From: Rhodocyclaceae bacterium
Lineage (GTDB): Bacteria > Pseudomonadota > Gammaproteobacteria > Burkholderiales > Rhodocyclaceae
Reading direction: 5' to 3'
DNA: 64,000 nucleotides
NCBI GenBank assembly: GCA_020445765.1
Contig: JAGRFY010000019.1
Span: 62,001-126,000 of the forward strand
The position numbers and the translations under genes are program-made. Below the pieces are notes generated by a model that made no database searches, had not been told where the DNA came from, and saw only the letters and a program-made list of their open reading frames with translations. Of this stretch, positions 4,577 through 63,674 are shown one piece after another (position 1 is the first letter of the stretch; every line of letters starts with the position of its first letter).

Positions 4577-5623
4577 ATGTCCACCGATTGTCCCCAGGAC
4601 CGACGGATTCCGGTCAGCGTGCTCAGCGGCTTTCTCGGGGCCGGCAAGTCCACCTTGCTGAATCACCTGCTGCGCCAGCCGCAGATGCAGGGCGCGGTGG
4701 TTCTGATCAACGAATTCGGCGAGATCGGTGTCGATCACCTGATCGTCGAAGTGAGCGCCGAGCGCATGGTGCTGCTCGATTCGGGTTGCCTGTGCTGTAC
4801 CGTCCGAGGCGAACTTCCCGGCGCCTTCAAGGATCTGTTCATGCGCAGCCTGCGGCGGGAAATCGAACCGATCCGACGGCTGCTGCTCGAGACCACCGGC
4901 CTGGCCGACCCGGCACCGCTGCTGCACACGCTGATGGAGGACTTCTTCATCGTCGAGCGATTCCGCCCCGATGGCATCATCACCGTGGTGGACGCCCTCG
5001 CCGCAGCGGGCCAGCTCGACCGGCACCGGGAGGCCCTGGCCCAGGTAGTGGCCGCGGACCGCCTGATCGTCAGCAAGATCGATCTGGCGAGCGACGACGC
5101 GCTCGCAGCGCTCGACGCGCGCCTCGAACGACTCAATCCGACCGCCGAGCGCCTCCATGCCACATTCGGCCGAATCGACGCGACGGCGCTCTGCGACCTG
5201 GGCCCTCTGGCTGCGGACGCCGACCCTATGGCTGCCCGACGCTGGCTCGGCGAGTCGCGGCTCGACGCCATCGTGCCGCGCTATCGCCCGGCATCCCGCG
5301 GCGGCATCCACGACAGCGGCGTCACCAGCCATCTGCTGCGCTTCCCGGAGGCTGTCGACTGGCCGAGCTTCGCCGAAGCCCTGGACGTGCTGCTGCAGGC
5401 GGCCGGCGACCGCATCCTGCGCGTCAAGGGGCTAGCCAAGGTGATCGGCGTCGACGGACCCAGGGTCGTCCAGTGTGCCGGCCGTATCCGCTTCGCCGCG
5501 CGCGACCTGCCGGCCTGGCCGCCCGACCAGACGCACGGGGCCCTGGTCTTCATCGTCGACGGTCTCGAACGGGACTACCTTGTCAGGACCTTCGAGATGT
5601 TCTGCGACACCAGCCCCGACTAG
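4577..5623 (+). CDS. COG0523 (CobW/ZNG1-type) metallochaperone GTPase
   Basis: 348 residues. Walker A GFLGAGKST lies at 18-26. The metal-binding CxCC motif is at Cys71, Cys73 and Cys74 (GCLCCTVRGEL), LLLETTGLADP follows, and SKID near 167-170 is the guanine-specificity motif. A C-terminal CobW_C domain runs to the end (HGALVFIVDGLERDYL). COG0523 GTPases deliver metals, usually zinc or cobalt, to client proteins; the subgroup (ZigA, YeiR, YjiA, CobW, nitrile hydratase activator) cannot be told from context. There is no His-rich tail and no adjacent Zur-type gene. The gene is monocistronic and converges on rsuA, with a 15-base gap between stops. Confidence 0.9.
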   Translation: MSTDCPQDRRIPVSVLSGFLGAGKSTLLNHLLRQPQMQGAVVLINEFGEIGVDHLIVEVSAERMVLLDSGCLCCTVRGELPGAFKDLFMRSLRREIEPIRRLLLETTGLADPAPLLHTLMEDFFIVERFRPDGIITVVDALAAAGQLDRHREALAQVVAADRLIVSKIDLASDDALAALDARLERLNPTAERLHATFGRIDATALCDLGPLAADADPMAARRWLGESRLDAIVPRYRPASRGGIHDSGVTSHLLRFPEAVDWPSFAEALDVLLQAAGDRILRVKGLAKVIGVDGPRVVQCAGRIRFAARDLPAWPPDQTHGALVFIVDGLERDYLVRTFEMFCDTSPD

Positions 5624-9417: not shown

Positions 9418-11514
9418 TTACGTGCCGGAGATTCCGTCCGCAGCGTCGGGCGCGGCGCGTCGCGGCACCAGCACGGAGAAGACGGCACCGCCTTCGGAAT
9501 GGTTGCCGGCCCGGATCGATCCGCCGTGAAGCGTGACGATTTCCCGGGTGATGGCCAGGCCGAGGCCGGTGCCGCCGGCGCCGGTCTTGGTCTTGGAACT
9601 CTGGACGAACTTGTCGAAGATCGATTCCAGTTCACTCTCGGGAATGCCGACGCCCTGGTCGCGAACGCTCATGCACAGTGCTGGCCGTCCCGATGGCAAT
9701 TCGCCGTCACCGAAGGCGATCGTGATCTCGCTCTGTGACGGCGAGAACTTGACCGCGTTCGCCACCAGATTCTGAATTACCGTAAGGAACTGCCGACGAT
9801 CGACGTAGGCCCGGGTGTCATCGGTCTGGCGGCTGACACGCAGCGTCAGCTGTCGGCTGTCGGTCAGGGCAGCGAGATCCCTGGCGATGACGCCCACCAG
9901 TTCGCGCACGTCGACGCGCCTGCATTGGAGCTTGGTCTGACGCGCTTCGAGCTTGGCGAGGTCGAGCAGATCGTCGACCAGTTCGCCGAGTCGATTGCCG
10001 CTTTTCACGATGCTCGCGAAATAGCTCCGCAGCTTTTCGGGTGATGAAGAATCGACCCGCTTCAGGCCGAGCGCCGCAAACGATCCGATGCCGTGCAACG
10101 GCGTCCGGAACTCGTGCGACATGTTCGCCAGGAATTCGCTCTTCGCCTGGTTGGCACGTTCTGCCTGTTCCTTCGCCGCCAGCAGATCGGCGGTCTGGCT
10201 GGCGACCAGCTCGGTCAGGTGGTCGCGGTGCATCTGCAGCTCCCGCTCGGCCAGTTTGCGCGACGTGATGTTCTTGATCGTTCCGCGGTAGCCCACGAAG
10301 CGGTCGGCCGGATCGAATACCGGGCGGCCGCTGAGACTCAGCCATTCCCAACCCTCGACCGCTTCATGCAACTGGAACTCGAGGTCGCGAAATTCCTGAC
10401 GATCGCGCATTGCCGTCTCGATCGCCCTGCATGCGGCCACCTGTTCGCGCGTCTGGCTGCGGGCGATCGATACCACGCTGGCGCCGACCACTTCGCGATG
10501 GCCGAACACCGGGCGAACGAACCGCAGGTTCTCGTCCGCCTCCCAGAAGCCGTCAGACGAGACCGAACTGAAGTCCCGGAAGCGCTGCTCGCTCTGCTGC
10601 AGCTCGCGCTCGCGCTCGCGCAGCAAGCTGATGTCCGACGCCACCACGACAGCACCCTCGAGCTTTCCACTACGCTCGTATAGCGGTGTGCCGCGGATGA
10701 TGAAGTGCCTTTCGCTACCGCTGCCCATCGCGTGCGCAAGGTTCGTCTCGAAGGCCAGACGCCCCCTGTCGAGGATCGTCCGGAAAAGCGTCAGGCCCGC
10801 TGGCAGGCCACTCGCCGGTGCGGCATCGCGCAATTCGGCCAGGCTTTGCGACGAGAGCAGAACGTCCCCGGGCCTGCCGACGACGTCGCTCGACTGGAAA
10901 CCGAGCTGCCCGGTGACGGCGGCGTTGATCTGGCTGATCCGGCCGCGAGCGTCCAGCACGACCAGCAGGTGCTCCATGCTGTTGATGACGTTGTCGATGA
11001 AGCGGCCGAGCCGTCCCTGCTCCTGTGCGCGCCGCTCGAGTTGACGGGATTTCTCCGACAGTTCCGCGATGATGCCGTCCATCACCTCGCTGATCGTCGT
11101 GACCTGCGCCTCGAGCACCGAGTTGGCTTCGCGCAGGGCACTGACTTCGTCCTTGAGCCGCGCCATCTCGTCCCGACTTCCGAAGATGTCGATCGCAACC
11201 GATTGCTGCAGGAAGAAGCGATCGCCCTGCCTGTCGACGAGGAAGGAGGCCGAGTTCGACTCGACTGGCACTTTCAAGCCATGAGCGCCGCAGATCAGAT
11301 TGCCTTCGCCGTCGCTGCGACAGCGATCCATCCGGCTGCCGTCATGGGGGCACTGCGCCGGGATACCGATCAGGCGACTGCCGCGCTGCAGGATCAGAAC
11401 GTGGGTCCTGGCATCGCCACCGGGGATGTCGACGTAGCCGCACCAGCGTCGATCGACACCAGCCACCGGTGTCACCGAGTGGATCGGTATCACGAACGCG
11501 CGCGTCGGTTCCAT
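9418..11514 (-). CDS. Soluble Rieske-PAS-PAS histidine kinase encoded with the hydrogenase
   Basis: 698 residues. Residues 1-110 form a Rieske-like domain with a full [2Fe-2S] ligand set: Cys55-Pro-His57 and, 17 residues on, Cys75-Gly-Ala-His78 ([18 protein letters not shown]). Residues 115-170 look like a coiled coil ([20 protein letters not shown]). Two PAS-like domains follow (about 172-298 and 305-420). HisKA has phospho-acceptor His467 in [12 protein letters not shown]. The HATPase domain has [17 protein letters not shown] and GGTGLGLAI. There is no transmembrane segment, so it is cytosolic. The start overlaps the endopeptidase gene by 25 bases, making it the last gene of a tight hydrogenase operon. 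Inference: the kinase senses redox state or H2 through the Rieske cluster. No cognate response regulator is adjacent. Confidence 0.9.
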
Positions 11515-11957
11515 CGGAGCCAGGCCATCACTGTCCGCGTCGCCGCCGGCATAGCCGCCGCGACCGCGCGCGACAGGCCGGGACGGAATGGGTCGATGCG
11601 ATCGGCCTCGACACCGACGATGCTGATCTGTGGCGGCTGCGGCAAGACCTTGAGAACGGTCTCGAGCAGGCAGCCGACGCCGGCGCCGTGACCCGGGGTC
11701 TCCTCCCGGGCGATCGCCTCGGCGGCCAGCACGTGCAGCGAGCCGGGCGGGCCATAGCCGCTCAGGGCGTCGATGACGAGGACCTGGTCACAGCCCTCGA
11801 AGCAGTCGATCGCGCTCGGGCTGGCGGCATCGGCGCGCATCAGGCGGGTGTCCGGCGGCAGGCCGAGCCCAGTCAGCTCGGCGTGCAGTGCAGGCCCGAA
11901 GCCGTCATCGCCGTGCAGCTCGTTGCCGAAACAGATCACGTGTGTGCTACACGCCAT
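11490..11957 (-). CDS. [NiFe]-hydrogenase maturation endopeptidase (HyaD/HupD/HupW family)
   Basis: 155 residues, normal length. The N-terminal [19 protein letters not shown] matches the GNxLxxDDGxG nickel-sensing motif of hydrogenase maturation proteases; Glu16 or nearby Asp residues and the later [17 protein letters not shown] supply metal ligands by family analogy. The enzyme removes the C-terminal extension of the large subunit after nickel insertion. The start overlaps the large-subunit gene by 11 bases and the stop lies inside the start of the kinase gene, so all are co-translated. Its presence agrees with the 12-residue extension after the last His of the large subunit. Confidence 0.9.
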
Positions 11958-13482
11958 AGCGCACCCGCTTGCCGCTGCCGGCGAAATGCACCGTGCATAC
12001 GAGGCAGGGATCGTGGGAGCGGACGATGTGTCCGAGTTCGACCGGATCGTCGGTATCGGCGATCTCCAGGCCGATCACGCTCTGTTCCCAATGACCATGG
12101 CGTCCGTGACTGTCCTTCGGCGACGCGTTCCAGGCCGTCGGCGTGACGATCTGGTAGCGAGCGATGCGGCCGTCACGCACCTGCAGCCAGTGGCCCAGCG
12201 TGCCGCGCGCCGCCTGCACGAGGCCGAATCCGTCCCCATCCGAGAGGGCGCCGGCGCTCGGGTTCAGGTAGTGTGGCTCACCGAGCCGGCGGGCCAGGTC
12301 CTCGACCTGGCTGCGCATCAGCGCGAGCGTGGTCGCGGACCGCCGTAGTCGGGCGAACTGGCGCAACCAGGTATTCGGCCCGAGTTTCGTCAGCATGTCG
12401 CGACACAATGCATCACCGGCCGCGAGCAACTCGGCCAAGGGACCGGTCTCGACCACGCGGCCGTCGTAGCGTGGCGCCTTCGCCCAGCTGTAGCGATCGC
12501 TGCCCGGCTGGTAGTCGGGCACCGTTTCGCCATCGAAGGGATGCCGACCGCCATCGTATGGGCGGAACCAGGAATGCCGCACATGTTCCGCGATCAGGGA
12601 CGGATCGAAGGCCGTCAGCGAGCCCTCGTCGGCGTCGTAGATGCCGGCCGCGAGCAGGGTTTCCTGCCCCCCGTACGGGGGGCCCCAGCGTTCGGGATGG
12701 TGGTAGCTGCCCCCCGACAGAAAGCTGCGCGCGCCGCCGCCCATTCGGTCGAGTCCGACCGAGCGGCTGAAGCGGCAAAACAGCGGCATCGCCAGTCGGG
12801 CCCGTTCCGGCTCGGCGAGCCAGCGTTCGAGCGCGTCGAGCGAATCGATCGACAGGAAGCACTCGAGGCGGTCGCCGAGCACGGCGTCTTCGAGCCACTC
12901 GATGGTGGTGCCGACCAGTTCCCGGCAATCGACGATGTCGCGAGCATTGGCGCCCCGTGTCACGCCGCCGGGCAGCATGTACGAGGAATGGGGCCACTGC
13001 CCGCCGAAGATCGCGACGACCTGCAGGATCCGGCGGCTGACGCCGAGGGCACCGATCACCGCGCTGCCTTTCAACGGCCGGAACGCGCTCGCGATCTCGG
13101 CGGCCAGCGGATGGTCGGCGTAGCGAGCATTCAGGAAGTCGGGCACGAAGAAGAGGAAGGTCTGGCGCAGGTCGCTCTGTACGTTCTCGGCCATCAGGCA
13201 GAGGTTTCTGATCAGCGTTGCCTGCGGCGGTACCGGCAGCCGCCCGAGCCGTTCGAGGGACAGTACGGCGGCGTAGAGATGGGCGGTGCCGCAGATGCCG
13301 CAGACACGCGGCGTGATCACCAACGCGTCGCGCGGCGCGCGATCCACCAGCAACTGTTCGAAACCGCGGAACAGGGTGCCGATACAGCGGGCATCGACGA
13401 TGCGACTGCCTTCGACATCGACCTCGAATTCGAGGTCTCCCTCGACCCGGTTGAGATCGACACCAATGGTTCGCCGCGCCAT
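11947..13482 (-). CDS. hupL: [NiFe] hydrogenase large subunit, group 2-type
   Basis: 511 residues from ATG at 13482, two bases after the small-subunit stop (TGAGGATG). The N-terminal L1 motif RVCGICGTAH supplies Cys61 and Cys64; the C-terminal L2 motif DPCLVCTVH supplies Cys493 and Cys496. These four cysteines bind the NiFe(CN)2CO centre. After His499 comes a 12-residue tail ([12 protein letters not shown]), the expected substrate of the adjacent endopeptidase. Sensor hydrogenases of group 2b (HoxC/HupV) lack a processed tail, so the tail argues for a catalytically mature, 2a-like enzyme. No hyp genes for cofactor synthesis lie in the window; they must be elsewhere for activity. Confidence 0.95.
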   Translation of the reverse strand: MARRTIGVDLNRVEGDLEFEVDVEGSRIVDARCIGTLFRGFEQLLVDRAPRDALVITPRVCGICGTAHLYAAVLSLERLGRLPVPPQATLIRNLCLMAENVQSDLRQTFLFFVPDFLNARYADHPLAAEIASAFRPLKGSAVIGALGVSRRILQVVAIFGGQWPHSSYMLPGGVTRGANARDIVDCRELVGTTIEWLEDAVLGDRLECFLSIDSLDALERWLAEPERARLAMPLFCRFSRSVGLDRMGGGARSFLSGGSYHHPERWGPPYGGQETLLAAGIYDADEGSLTAFDPSLIAEHVRHSWFRPYDGGRHPFDGETVPDYQPGSDRYSWAKAPRYDGRVVETGPLAELLAAGDALCRDMLTKLGPNTWLRQFARLRRSATTLALMRSQVEDLARRLGEPHYLNPSAGALSDGDGFGLVQAARGTLGHWLQVRDGRIARYQIVTPTAWNASPKDSHGRHGHWEQSVIGLEIADTDDPVELGHIVRSHDPCLVCTVHFAGSGKRVRYGV

Positions 13483-13484
13483 CC

Positions 13485-14426
13485 TCAGGGTTCCATTTCG
13501 CGCTTGATCAGTCGCACCGGCGCAGCGGCCTTCGCCAGGTTCTTGTAAGCCATGTAGCGGGCACGGGAGACCCCCAGCGGCAGCGTGACCGGGACGTCCC
13601 CGATCTTGTCGGTTCGGAAGAGGTCGCCGTCCCGTGGGAAGTCCGGCGATGTACAGCCGAAGCAGGGCACCCCGGCGCGCGTCTTGCTGCTGCGGTTGTT
13701 CCACAGCTCGGCATTGCAGTTGGCAAGCGTGCCGGGTCCCTGGCAGCCGAGATTGAAGTACATGCACGCCTTGCCACCCGGCTCGTGATCCTCGACATCG
13801 TATTCGTGGTACTCGTTGCGCGTGCACCCCTGATGCACGGTGGACGCGTAGAAGACTCGCGGCCGATTCAGGAAGTCGAGTTCGAACGGCGTGTCGGAGG
13901 CCAGCATCGCCAAGCTGCGGGTGATCGTCAGCGGATGCACCGGACAACCCGCCAGATTGATCACCGGGCGACCATCGCCCGAGCGCCAGTCGGCGCCGAG
14001 CAGCCCCCCCGGTTCGGCGTGGTCGTACTGCAGACCGGTCGCATCGGACGGATTGGGAGGTGCGGCATGGACACCGCCGAAGGCGGCACAGGTGCCCACC
14101 GCCACCACGGTGCGCGCACGGGCGGCGAGCGCGGCGGCGATCTGCATCTTCGGGCGCCCGCGATGGCTGTCGAACATGCCGCTGCCGTAGGGTCCGGTGA
14201 TGATGCTGCCTTCGATGCAGAGGATGTCGAGTGCCTGGCGACCCGACTCGATGCGCTCGACCAGGCGCGCGAATTCACCGGAGGGATGATCGCTCAGCGA
14301 TGGATGCCAGAGCAGCTCGATCGCACCGCTGCGGATCAGGCCTTCGATCGATGGACCGTCCGCATTCAGCAGCGACATGCTGTCGCCACTGCAGGCGCCA
14401 GTCTGCATCCACAGCAAGTTGGCCAT
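13485..14426 (-). CDS. hupS: [NiFe] hydrogenase small subunit, group 2-type, cytosolic, with Asp at a proximal-cluster position
   Basis: 313 residues from ATG at 14426 with GGAAGAG upstream. It begins directly with MANLLWMQTGACSGDSMSLL, with no Tat signal and no C-terminal anchor, so the enzyme stays in the cytosol. Proximal-cluster ligands are Cys12, Cys113 and Cys161; the usual fourth Cys is Asp15 (CSGD). Group 2a cyanobacterial enzymes have CSGN here, from recollection. Distal-cluster candidates are His198, Cys201, Cys221 and Cys228; medial candidates are Cys237, Cys255 and Cys258 (PCFGCTSP). It is the first gene of the operon and is divergent from uvrA across a 170-base gap that must hold the promoter. 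Confidence 0.95.
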   Translation of the reverse strand: MANLLWMQTGACSGDSMSLLNADGPSIEGLIRSGAIELLWHPSLSDHPSGEFARLVERIESGRQALDILCIEGSIITGPYGSGMFDSHRGRPKMQIAAALAARARTVVAVGTCAAFGGVHAAPPNPSDATGLQYDHAEPGGLLGADWRSGDGRPVINLAGCPVHPLTITRSLAMLASDTPFELDFLNRPRVFYASTVHQGCTRNEYHEYDVEDHEPGGKACMYFNLGCQGPGTLANCNAELWNNRSSKTRAGVPCFGCTSPDFPRDGDLFRTDKIGDVPVTLPLGVSRARYMAYKNLAKAAAPVRLIKREMEP

Positions 14427-14596: not shown

Positions 14597-20095
<5,499 letters not shown>

Positions 20096-61695: not shown

Positions 61696-62358
61696 GTGAG
61701 ATTGCTGTTGGTCGAAGACGACCCGATGGTCGGTGCCGCGGTCCAGCGCGGCCTGCGCCAGGAGGGGCATGCGGTCGACTGGGTGGAGGACGGTGTCGCG
61801 GCAGCGCTTGCCCTACGGGATCATCCGTTCGAACTGGTGCTGCTCGACCTTGGCCTGCCCCGGCGTGACGGCCTGGCGCTGTTGTCCGAGATCCGCGCCG
61901 GTGGCAACCCGGTGCCGGTGCTGATCCTGACCGCCCGCGATTCGATTGCCGACCGCATCGCCGGCCTCGACGCCGGCGCCGACGACTACCTGGTCAAGCC
62001 CTTCGACCTCGATGAACTGGCGGCCCGGATCCGCGCCCTCGGGCGGCGGCAGCGGGGCCAGGCCGAACCGGTGGTCAGCCACGGCCCGCTGGTGCTCGAC
62101 CCAGCCGCCCATGCCGTGACCCTCGACGAGCGGCCGCTGAAGCTGTCGGCGCGGGAGTTCGCGCTGTTGCAGGCGCTGCTCGAACAGCCCGGCCGGCCGT
62201 TGTCGCGGAGCCAGCTCGAGGACCGCCTGTACGGCTGGGGCGAGGAAGTCGAAAGCAACGCCATCGAAGTGCATATCCACGGCCTGCGGCGCAAGCTCGG
62301 TGCTGGCTGGATCCTGAACCTGCGCGGCGTCGGCTGGTACGTCCCCGAAACGCCGTGA
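61696..62358 (+). CDS. OmpR-family response regulator (QseB/PmrA-like)
   Basis: 220 residues with GTG start at 61696. Receiver: Asp8-Asp9 acid pocket, phosphorylated Asp51 (LVLLDLGLPRRDG) and Lys101 in YLVKPFDL. C-terminal winged helix (LKLSAREFALLQALLEQPGR; NAIEVHIHGLRRKLG). It ends with LRGVGWYVPETP as in QseB/PmrA. It is the partner of the kinase downstream; the two genes overlap by 4 bases (GTGA). Confidence 0.95.
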   Translation: MRLLLVEDDPMVGAAVQRGLRQEGHAVDWVEDGVAAALALRDHPFELVLLDLGLPRRDGLALLSEIRAGGNPVPVLILTARDSIADRIAGLDAGADDYLVKPFDLDELAARIRALGRRQRGQAEPVVSHGPLVLDPAAHAVTLDERPLKLSAREFALLQALLEQPGRPLSRSQLEDRLYGWGEEVESNAIEVHIHGLRRKLGAGWILNLRGVGWYVPETP

Positions 62359-63674
62359 GGAGCCTGCGCCGGGATCTGCTGGTCTACGTGCTCGGTTCGG
62401 TGGTCGCCGCCTTCCTGCTCGGCGGTGCGGCCACCTACTACATGGCGCGGGCCGAAGTGGACGAGGTGATGGACTATCACCTGCGCCAGTTCGCGCTGTC
62501 TCTGCGCGACCAGCGCTTCGGCCAGCCGATCACACCGCCCGCCGGGGTGCCCGAGGAAGCGCTCGACATCGTGATCCAGATCTGGGATCCGCGCGGCCTC
62601 AAGCTCTACCTGTCGAATCCCCACAGCCAGTTGCCGTCGACCGCGCAGCTGGGCTATTCCGACACCCGCACCGACGAGGGGCGCTGGCGGATGTTCACGG
62701 TGGCGATGCGCGACCGGGTTGTGCAGGTGGCGCAACCGATGCGCGTGCGCAGCCGGGTCGCCGCGTCGGCCGCGATCCGCACCCTGCTGCCGCTCTTTCT
62801 GATGCTGCCATTGCTCGGTGGCATGATCTGGTACATGGTCGGCCGTGGACTGCGACCGCTCGACCGGCTCGCCCGCGGCGTCGCCGCGCGGCGACCCGAC
62901 GCACTGTCGCCGCTGGCCGCTGGCGGCGTGCCGGCCGAGGCGCGGCCACTGGTGGACGCCCTCAACGACCTGCTCGGTCGCCTCGAACGGGCCCTGGCCA
63001 CTCAGCGTGCCTTCGTCGCCGACGCCGCCCACGAACTGCGCACCCCTTTGACCGCGCTCCAGCTTCAGCTCCAGCTCACCGAGCGCGCCGCCGACGACGC
63101 CGAACGCGCCGAGGCGCTGGGCGAGCTGAAACGGGGCCTGCAGAGGGCGATCCATCTGGTCGGCCAGTTGTTGACTCTGGCCCGCCAGGAACCGGACAGT
63201 GATGTCAGGCCGAGCCGGGAACCGCTCGATCTGGCCGAGCTGGCGGCCCTGGCGCTGACCGACCATTCGGCCCTGGCCCGCGCCAAGGACATCGACCTCG
63301 GCGCCGGCCGACGCGACCCGGCGGCGCATGTCGTCGGCGACGCCGCCGCCTTACGCACGATGATAGGCTGCCTGCTCGACAATGCGATCCGCTACACGCC
63401 GGCCGGGGGGCGGGTCGATCTGACGGTACGCATTGACAGCGATCGGGTCGTGCTCGAGATCGCCGACAGCGGACCGGGCATCCCGCCGACCGAGCGCGAA
63501 CGGGTGTTCGACCGCTTTTATCGGCGAGCCGGCCAGAGCCAGACCGGAAGCGGGCTCGGGCTGGCGATCGTCAAGGCGATTGCCGAGGGTCACCAGGCGC
63601 TGGTCGAACTCGGCGTCGCCGAAGCCGGCGGCCTGCTGGTGCGCATCGCCTTCCCGCCGGCCGTACCGGCCTGA
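62355..63674 (+). CDS. QseC/PmrB-like sensor histidine kinase
   Basis: 439 residues, GTG start at 62355. TM1 is about 10-30, a periplasmic part about 31-140 of the QseC type (VIQIWDPRGLKLYLSNPHSQ), TM2 near 143-163, HAMP, then HisKA with His226 (VADAAHELRTPLTALQLQ). HATPase motifs are LLDNAIRYTPAG, DSGPGIPPTER and GSGLGLAIVKAIAEG. The signal is unknown. Overlaps the response regulator gene. Confidence 0.95.
   Translation: MRSLRRDLLVYVLGSVVAAFLLGGAATYYMARAEVDEVMDYHLRQFALSLRDQRFGQPITPPAGVPEEALDIVIQIWDPRGLKLYLSNPHSQLPSTAQLGYSDTRTDEGRWRMFTVAMRDRVVQVAQPMRVRSRVAASAAIRTLLPLFLMLPLLGGMIWYMVGRGLRPLDRLARGVAARRPDALSPLAAGGVPAEARPLVDALNDLLGRLERALATQRAFVADAAHELRTPLTALQLQLQLTERAADDAERAEALGELKRGLQRAIHLVGQLLTLARQEPDSDVRPSREPLDLAELAALALTDHSALARAKDIDLGAGRRDPAAHVVGDAAALRTMIGCLLDNAIRYTPAGGRVDLTVRIDSDRVVLEIADSGPGIPPTERERVFDRFYRRAGQSQTGSGLGLAIVKAIAEGHQALVELGVAEAGGLLVRIAFPPAVPA

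What the first reader, a model, noticed from the sequence alone, without database searches (positions are those of the whole stretch)
9418..14426. Cytosolic [NiFe] hydrogenase operon that ends in a Rieske-domain histidine kinase
Four genes overlap or nearly touch (small subunit, large subunit, endopeptidase, kinase). The kinase has a complete Rieske ligand set (Cys55, His57, Cys75, His78) ahead of two PAS domains and intact HisKA/HATPase motifs, and no membrane segment. Known H2-sensing uses a different set-up: HoxBC/HupUV sensor hydrogenase with a PAS kinase (HoxJ/HupT). Rieske-type protein HucE accompanies the mycobacterial group 2a hydrogenase Huc, but not as a kinase. Here the electron acceptor and the sensor kinase may be one protein: H2 oxidation reduces the Rieske cluster and changes autophosphorylation. 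This could be a new H2 or redox signalling module.
Basis: partly seen in the sequence, partly recalled or inferred. Interest (0 to 1): 0.88.

Follow-up and report, generated by a model that had tools for sequence, protein, structure and literature searches.

The report
Hydrogenase operon ending in Rieske kinase
A bacterium of the Rhodocyclaceae carries a hydrogen-splitting enzyme of a putatively hydrogen-sensing class next to a signalling kinase whose front end looks like a small iron-sulfur electron-accepting domain, which suggests a concrete and testable answer to how such sensors pass the hydrogen signal on.

Summary
In detail: SSU, LSU, protease and a 698-aa kinase form a tight minus-strand operon, and the kinase starts with a Rieske domain (C55, H57, C75, H78). 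The hydrogenase is neither Huc nor HoxBC. It falls in the clade with Methylobacter enzymes, reported as group 2c, which HydDB lists as a putative H2 sensor linked to diguanylate cyclases. So H2 signalling is a known prediction; the Rieske input is what I found no description of. Of the best 80 loci (94 confirmed), 28 hold a ligand-complete Rieske of one family: fused to kinases (10, one interrupted by a stop), to GGDEF-EAL proteins (16), or separate (2). All 72 readable downstream genes share a coil-PAS core. Best reading: H2 oxidation reduces the Rieske cluster, which acts through coil-PAS on the kinase or c-di-GMP enzyme. Against it as a general rule: 43 of 72 readable loci have no Rieske, a Zoogloea branch lacks it, and three Rhodocyclaceae genomes keep a ligand-less remnant. 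No cluster, electron transfer or H2 response has been measured. New variant of a known kind; it makes the unknown acceptor of H2 sensors testable.

The parts
13485..14426 (-). [NiFe]-hydrogenase small subunit, 313 aa, starts MANLLWMQTGACSGD with no room for a Tat signal; Asp at the fourth position of the proximal-cluster motif
   Evidence: Pfam Oxidored_q6 E 7.7e-25 and NiFe_hyd_SSU_C E 2e-23; alignment of 7 orthologues; motif comparison
11947..13482 (-). [NiFe]-hydrogenase large subunit, 511 aa, L1 RVCGICG, L2 SHDPCLVCTVH followed by a 12-aa C-terminal extension
   Evidence: Pfam NiFeSe_Hases E 1.8e-79; best solved relatives 7utd/7uus Hydrogenase-2 large subunit, 333.6 bits (that these are Huc is recalled); motifs
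11490..11957 (-). hydrogenase maturation endopeptidase, 155 aa
   Evidence: Pfam HycI E 3.8e-9; TIGR00072 89.9 bits, cut-off 47.45
9418..11514 (-). soluble Rieske-coil-PAS-PAS-HisKA-HATPase sensor kinase, 698 aa, no receiver domain
   Evidence: Pfam; motif positions and hydropathy; orthologues
11161..11514 (-). N-terminal Rieske-type domain of the kinase (residues 1-118 modelled; ligands C55, H57, C75, H78)
10978..11175 (-). 66-residue predicted helix (residues 114-179) joining the Rieske domain to the first PAS
   Evidence: AF2 of residues 1-317, mean pLDDT 83.9, pTM 0.45; coil-PAS1 profile
10609..10977 (-). first PAS domain (about residues 180-302), shared with the coil by the downstream genes of the family

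Best explanation
This is a cytoplasmic H2-sensing operon of the group 2c lineage. Shown here: the four genes, the Rieske-type domain, operon conservation, and the same Rieske module on kinases, on GGDEF-EAL enzymes and as a separate gene. Inferred: the two subunits oxidise H2; the electron leaves through the iron-sulfur chain of the small subunit to a Rieske [2Fe-2S] cluster at the front of the kinase; reduction of that cluster, and its reoxidation by O2 or another oxidant, moves the long helix and first PAS domain and so switches autophosphorylation. By analogy with HoxJ (phosphorylates without H2) and chloroplast sensor kinase (reduced cluster = kinase off) I expect reduction to lower kinase activity, but the sign is a guess. 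No response regulator is encoded next door; a plausible target is the genome's other, NAD-linked-type hydrogenase on contig C185.
For: Group: 79-row clade holding the window and Methylobacter sequences, 100/100, apart from references taken as group 2a (L107-L110, L113) and 2b (HoxBC L106, HupUV L111) (smaller mixture-model tree, 28-row clade 100/99). Operon conservation. Rieske family: 26 of 72 readable downstream genes fused, plus 2 stand-alone genes, 28 of 80 loci ligand-complete. Output swap: of the 26 fused, 9 carry a kinase core, 16 a GGDEF core, and L026 is cut by a stop before its kinase core; Pfam shows GGDEF-EAL in L040 and L045. Stand-alone Rieske followed by a kinase gene in L075 and L089, a gene-fusion pair. 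Purifying selection. Literature passages: a sensor hydrogenase passes electrons to a 'yet unknown cytoplasmic electron acceptor' (PMC5665086); continuous H2 oxidation with electron transfer is held to be required for sensing (PMC10073562); HucE, with a Rieske motif, is needed for activity of Huc (PMC6883350).
Against: 43 of 72 readable loci have no Rieske-family domain above 30 bits, so the lineage can evidently do without it. Zoogloea L036 and L038 have the orthologous kinase without the Rieske and no family hit elsewhere in the locus; L042 (=G305), G104 and G216 keep a ligand-less remnant, and the stand-alone one in L079 has Tyr for the last His. The window domain is below Pfam's Rieske cut-off and Foldseek E-values are weak. 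The coil-PAS1 profile matches HoxJ and HupT at 38-39 bits, but other non-partner proteins of the loci reach 35.6, 42.5 and 62, so kinship to HoxJ/HupT by this test is inconclusive. Nothing shows electron transfer, kinase activity or H2 response. Presence is patchy: 2 of 5 congeners (G001, G004) have no small-subunit hit.
Confidence: 0.55

Rival explanations
1. The hydrogenase signals mainly through protein contact with the coil-PAS core, as presumed for HoxBC-HoxJ; the Rieske is an accessory electron outlet that lets the sensor turn over, or an independent O2/redox gate, and is not the switch itself.
For: The coil-PAS1 core is in all 72 readable downstream genes (69 of them were used to build the profile) and in the cut one of L079, whereas the Rieske is fused in 26 of 72; Rieske-less orthologues persist in Zoogloea and other lineages. 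Three genomes keep the domain but not the ligands.
Against: In the 28 ligand-complete loci the ligand set is kept across fused kinase, fused GGDEF-EAL and stand-alone forms, and the module stays next to the hydrogenase whichever output it is on.
Confidence: 0.3
2. The hydrogenase is an uptake enzyme and the Rieske domain is its respiratory electron carrier, like HucE with Huc; the kinase part is secondary.
For: Closest solved structures are Hydrogenase-2 large subunits 7utd/7uus. Plasmid operons taken as group 2a carry a NifU/Rieske gene. A C-terminal extension and protease are shared with that group.
Against: No NifU domain found here; the NifU/Rieske proteins match the family profile only at 14-27 bits; tree and motifs place the enzyme outside that group; the downstream gene has a kinase or GGDEF core in 71 of 72 readable loci, the other being the interrupted L026; no membrane segment.
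Confidence: 0.1
3. The kinase senses something else (O2, NO, general redox) through its Rieske cluster and merely lies in the hydrogenase operon.
For: Fe-S sensor kinases for other cues exist: chloroplast sensor kinase responds to plastoquinol (PMC6949291, passages).
Against: In 15 of 15 genomes with a strong family hit the domain belongs to the hydrogenase operon, one of them inferred across a contig break; none of 368 other genomes drawn across the class has it at E<=1e-10, though at most 12 candidates per genome were scored.
Confidence: 0.05

Closest known systems
HydDB group 2c [NiFe]-hydrogenase, 'Diguanylate cyclase-linked (putative)' (PMC5037454 table passage; PMC4853749 passages)
   Same: Same clade as Methylobacter enzymes; cytosolic SSU-LSU; signalling gene directly downstream; putative H2 sensing
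   Different: Window output is a histidine kinase, not a cyclase; a Rieske input is not mentioned in the passages I saw (HydDB text: 0 occurrences of Rieske); L2 reads SHDPCLVCTVH against the quoted consensus SFDxCLVCTVH
Regulatory hydrogenase HoxBC/HupUV with kinase HoxJ/HupT (group 2b; PMC5665086 and PMC10073562 passages)
   Same: Cytosolic H2 sensor plus soluble PAS kinase in the operon
   Different: Separate clade; HoxC/HupV of L106 and L111 have no C-terminal extension and no protease gene beside them; CxxC instead of CxxD in the small subunit; no Rieske; response regulator encoded beside it
Huc/HucE (group 2a; PMC6883350 passages)
   Same: Rieske-motif protein encoded with a group 2 hydrogenase and needed for its activity; Huc-type large subunit is the best PDB match
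   Different: HucE has a NifU domain and is not a kinase; different clade and motifs (GDCA and QTGC against GTCA and HQGC)
Chloroplast sensor kinase / Hik2 (PMC6949291 passages)
   Same: Fe-S histidine kinase whose cluster redox state sets autophosphorylation
   Different: [3Fe-4S] cluster, plastoquinone signal, no hydrogenase

Membership tests
HydDB group 2c hydrogenase | Falls in the clade with known group 2c (Methylobacter) and outside 2a and 2b | tested here: met
   79-row clade 100/100; 28-row clade 100/99. Methylobacter genomes carry groups 1d, 1e, 2c, 3d by HydDB (PMC12810054 passage) and M. tundripaludum is the top hit of a likely 2c enzyme (PMC4853749 passage); that locus L045 is the gene meant is my inference
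HydDB group 2c hydrogenase | L2 motif SFDxCLVCTVH | tested here: inconclusive
   Window SHDPCLVCTVH, one difference, shared by all 8 clade rows shown including Methylobacter L045; sister lineage L155/L157 has SFDPCLVCTVH
HydDB group 2c hydrogenase | Linked to a diguanylate cyclase | tested here: not met
   Window has a kinase; 33 of 72 readable relatives have a GGDEF core, 38 a kinase core, 1 is interrupted. So I place it with 2c by descent and do not call it a cyclase-linked system
HydDB group 2c hydrogenase | HydDB classifier call | not testable with these tools
   web tool not available
Group 2b regulatory hydrogenase (HoxBC/HupUV) | Clade with HoxBC/HupUV | tested here: not met
   (long branches noted there)
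Group 2b regulatory hydrogenase (HoxBC/HupUV) | Large subunit without C-terminal extension, no protease gene | tested here: not met
   12-aa extension after CTVH and adjacent protease
Group 2b regulatory hydrogenase (HoxBC/HupUV) | Soluble PAS histidine kinase partner in the operon | tested here: met
   specific kinship of the coil-PAS to HoxJ/HupT inconclusive
Group 2a Huc with HucE | Clade with group 2a and a NifU-Rieske HucE gene | tested here: not met
   references taken as 2a by me from gene content
Rieske [2Fe-2S] domain (PF00355) | C-x-H ... C-x2-H ligand set | tested here: met
   C55-H57-x17-C75-x2-H78; 28 of 80 loci ligand-complete
Rieske [2Fe-2S] domain (PF00355) | Pfam gathering score | tested here: not met
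   16.2 against 20.3 bits for the window; relatives L045 26.4, L075 37.9, L089 34.8 pass, L040 17.6 does not
Rieske [2Fe-2S] domain (PF00355) | Rieske fold | tested here: met
   AF2 and Foldseek, 38 of 38 best matches Rieske, weak E-values
Rieske [2Fe-2S] domain (PF00355) | Bound [2Fe-2S] cluster | not testable with these tools
   needs EPR or metal analysis
Histidine kinase | HisKA and HATPase_c with H-, N- and G-box motifs | tested here: met

The most novel reading that the evidence does not exclude
The Rieske domain is the physiological electron acceptor of a sensory [NiFe]-hydrogenase: an old, portable redox relay of the group 2c lineage, once a separate protein, that was fused to histidine kinases in one branch and to c-di-GMP enzymes in others, so that H2 turnover is read directly as cluster reduction.
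Probability: 0.42. Interest if true: 0.85.

Novelty: new variant of a known kind. Interest (0 to 1): 0.68.

Why it matters
How H2-sensing [NiFe]-hydrogenases hand the signal to their kinase is unresolved; the spectroscopic study of the best-known sensor speaks of a 'yet unknown cytoplasmic electron acceptor' (PMC5665086, passage). Here a candidate acceptor is fused to the output protein, with natural variants: fused to a kinase, fused to a cyclase/phosphodiesterase, separate, ligand-less, and absent. That set opens the question to spectroscopy and kinase assays in named isolates such as Zoogloea oleivorans Buc (L030) or Methylobacter tundripaludum SV96 (L045; records). It would also add Rieske clusters to the inputs of two-component and c-di-GMP signalling.

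Tried and rejected
Huc/HucE-type uptake operon: rejected by tree, motifs and absence of a NifU domain. Membership in HoxBC/HupUV: rejected. Chance motif: rejected by cross-clade profile, fold and selection. HoxJ/HupT kinship of the coil-PAS1 core: at first looked positive, but the control put other proteins of the loci at similar or higher scores, so it is not used. Response regulator beside the kinase: none seen; the downstream 122-aa ORF (9336-8968) has no Pfam hit at E<=0.001 and the gene after the Zoogloea kinases L036 and L038 is SelO. Single origin of the Rieske: the tree needs 5 to 6 state changes and cannot tell gain from loss (5 on the smaller tree); left open. The hydrogenase on contig C185 I first named HoxFUYH; NCBIfam gives only sub-cut-off matches (HoxU 149 bits, NuoF family 319, large subunit best VhuA 378), so it is given here as NAD-linked type, by eye.

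Literature: no paper found that joins Rieske with a histidine kinase or GGDEF protein and a hydrogenase; the searches were over the open PMC library, seen as listings; passages were read only in the papers cited. The paper that defined group 2c (Greening et al., PMC4817680) is not held, so its figures, which may show a Rieske gene, are unseen.
Full report
Setting. The window lies in a 4.84-Mb draft genome in 210 contigs. The operon is on the minus strand, divergent from a uvrA gene at 14597.

Observation. The four genes, their spacing, the kinase domains and the four Rieske ligands are as described. The kinase has no receiver and no likely membrane segment. The Rieske call had to be earned: Pfam misses it in the full protein and gives 16.2 bits, under the cut-off, for the N-terminus alone; but 29 of 30 aligned relatives match PF00355 at E<=1, relatives L045, L075 and L089 pass the cut-off, the predicted fold matches Rieske proteins in the first 38 PDB ranks, at weak E-values, and a profile with no Rhodocyclaceae in it still finds the window domain.

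Which hydrogenase. With 7 orthologous small subunits I scanned one genome per species in genome contigs: 145 stretches matched a pattern, 94 were confirmed, the best 80 were kept. References came from annotated plasmids: HoxBC-HoxJ of Cupriavidus necator (L106), HupUV of Fuscovulum (L111), operons that I take as group 2a, four of them with a NifU or Rieske gene in the stretch (L107-L109, L113) and one without (L110), and Sulfurovum as outgroup (L112). Of 80 loci, window and 8 references, 87 rows had both subunits; L031 and L092 were dropped. The window sits in a 79-row clade (100/100) apart from 2a and 2b; the program flags L112 and the joins of the reference groups as long branches. A 38-row mixture-model tree agrees (28 rows, 100/99) and puts a further Rhodocyclaceae lineage (L155-L157) just outside. 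Residues agree: GTCA and HQGC near 2b's GTCA and HHGC, a C-terminal extension and protease as in 2a, and CxxD at the proximal-cluster motif, where 2b has CxxC and 2a CxxN (some clade members have CxxE). Methylobacter genomes are reported to carry group 2c and no other group 2 (PMC12810054 passage), M. tundripaludum is the top hit of a likely 2c enzyme (PMC4853749 passage), and HydDB lists 2c as diguanylate cyclase-linked, putative, may sense H2 (PMC5037454 table passage).

What follows the protease. In 72 of 80 loci a downstream gene could be read; L031, L072, L077 and L092 had no protease match and L037, L058, L079, L105 had no readable gene before the contig end. 38 of 72 have a kinase core, 33 a GGDEF core, none both; L026 is interrupted by a stop before its kinase core. 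All 72, and the cut gene in L079, match the same coil-PAS1 profile (117-290 bits; 69 of the 72 were used to build it). 26 of the 72 begin with a ligand-complete Rieske: 9 with kinase, 16 with GGDEF, and L026. L075 (SAR324) and L089 (Pseudoalteromonas) have a 112- and a 109-aa Rieske gene followed by a kinase. The family profile also finds a remnant in L042 and a stand-alone one with Tyr for the last His in L079. 43 of 72 readable loci have no family hit above 30 bits. Rieske presence changes at least 5 to 6 times on the tree, output type at least 2 times.

Independent genome counts. In 395 Rhodocyclaceae-family genomes the Rieske profile gives 15 genomes at 62.6 bits or more and then drops to 36.5 for ordinary small Rieske proteins; at most 11 candidates per genome were scored, and 11 of the 15 are rows of the profile themselves. 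In the same draw the small-subunit profile gives 22 genomes at 510 bits or more. 14 of the 15 are among those 22; the fifteenth, G411, has large subunit, protease and kinase on a contig that ends inside the large subunit. In G427 protease and kinase lie at the ends of two contigs. 12 of 15 have all four ligands; G104, G216 and G305 do not. 8 of the 22 have no Rieske-family hit. Of 369 genomes drawn across the class only the window's own has the domain at E<=1e-10.

Mechanism. From the literature: sensing by HoxBC is held to need H2 turnover and electron transfer, and the acceptor is unknown (PMC10073562, PMC5665086 passages). HucE, with a Rieske motif, is needed for Huc activity, and its authors argue that a potential above -150 mV suits electrons from atmospheric H2 (PMC6883350 passages). 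Fe-S redox state controls autophosphorylation in chloroplast sensor kinase (PMC6949291 passages). From the sequence: the domain lacks the extra cysteines and the Ser/Tyr after CxxHG that raise the potential in bc1-type Rieske proteins (a recalled rule), so I expect a ferredoxin-like low potential, which H2 at nanomolar levels could still reduce (own Nernst estimate, not a tool result). AF2 places a 66-residue helix between Rieske and PAS1, a usual signalling element in dimeric kinases (recalled). Hence: H2 reduces the cluster, helix and PAS relay, kinase activity changes. The same relay would serve the GGDEF-EAL partners in methanotrophs.

Limits. The Rieske is not universal in the clade, is missing in L036 and L038, and is ligand-less in one Rhodocyclaceae branch; so either contact with coil-PAS carries the basic signal and the Rieske tunes it, or lineages without it use another acceptor. 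I weigh the switch reading at 0.55 and the accessory reading at 0.3.

Cellular context. PF00374 hits in this 94%-complete draft map to two hydrogenases, this one and one on contig C185. The latter has HoxU-like and NuoF-like genes beside it (below the NCBIfam cut-offs, so NAD-linked type by eye). HypF (723 bits) and HypD lie on contig C122, beside a gene that I read by eye as HypX-like. So maturation genes exist and the second hydrogenase is a plausible regulated target.

Noticed in passing
window 14597-20095 (+): 1832-aa protein matching UvrA three times over (NF001503, 2016 bits), a tandem UvrA divergent from the hydrogenase operon; an 1830-aa ORF lies in the same place in L028.
   Followed up: partly
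L026 12913-14085 (same contig as L020): One congener's Rieske kinase has an in-frame stop after 390 codons; pseudogene or assembly error.
   Followed up: no
L155, L156, L157: A sister lineage of group 2 hydrogenases in Rhodocyclaceae (small-subunit scores 387-417 bits in 12 of 395 genomes) sits beside a PAS kinase (receiver domain seen by Pfam in L155), has FDPCLVCTVH near the large-subunit end in L155 and L157, and no Rieske-family hit.
   Followed up: partly
L042 (=L150), L148, L149: Kinases that keep the Rieske-like segment but lost its metal ligands, forming one branch: a natural cluster-free control.
   Followed up: partly
L092 7056-7976: Beggiatoa MAG with a small subunit of this family but no large-subunit match in the locus.
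   Followed up: no
L006 (contig C185 of the window's genome): A second hydrogenase with HoxU-like and NuoF-like genes and a protease-like ORF.
   Followed up: partly
window 4577-5623 (+): CobW-family GTPase (PF02492), a possible metal chaperone some 4 kb from the operon.
   Followed up: no
window 61696-63674 (+): Response regulator with Trans_reg_C domain and a 2CSK_N-type kinase, far from the operon.
   Followed up: no
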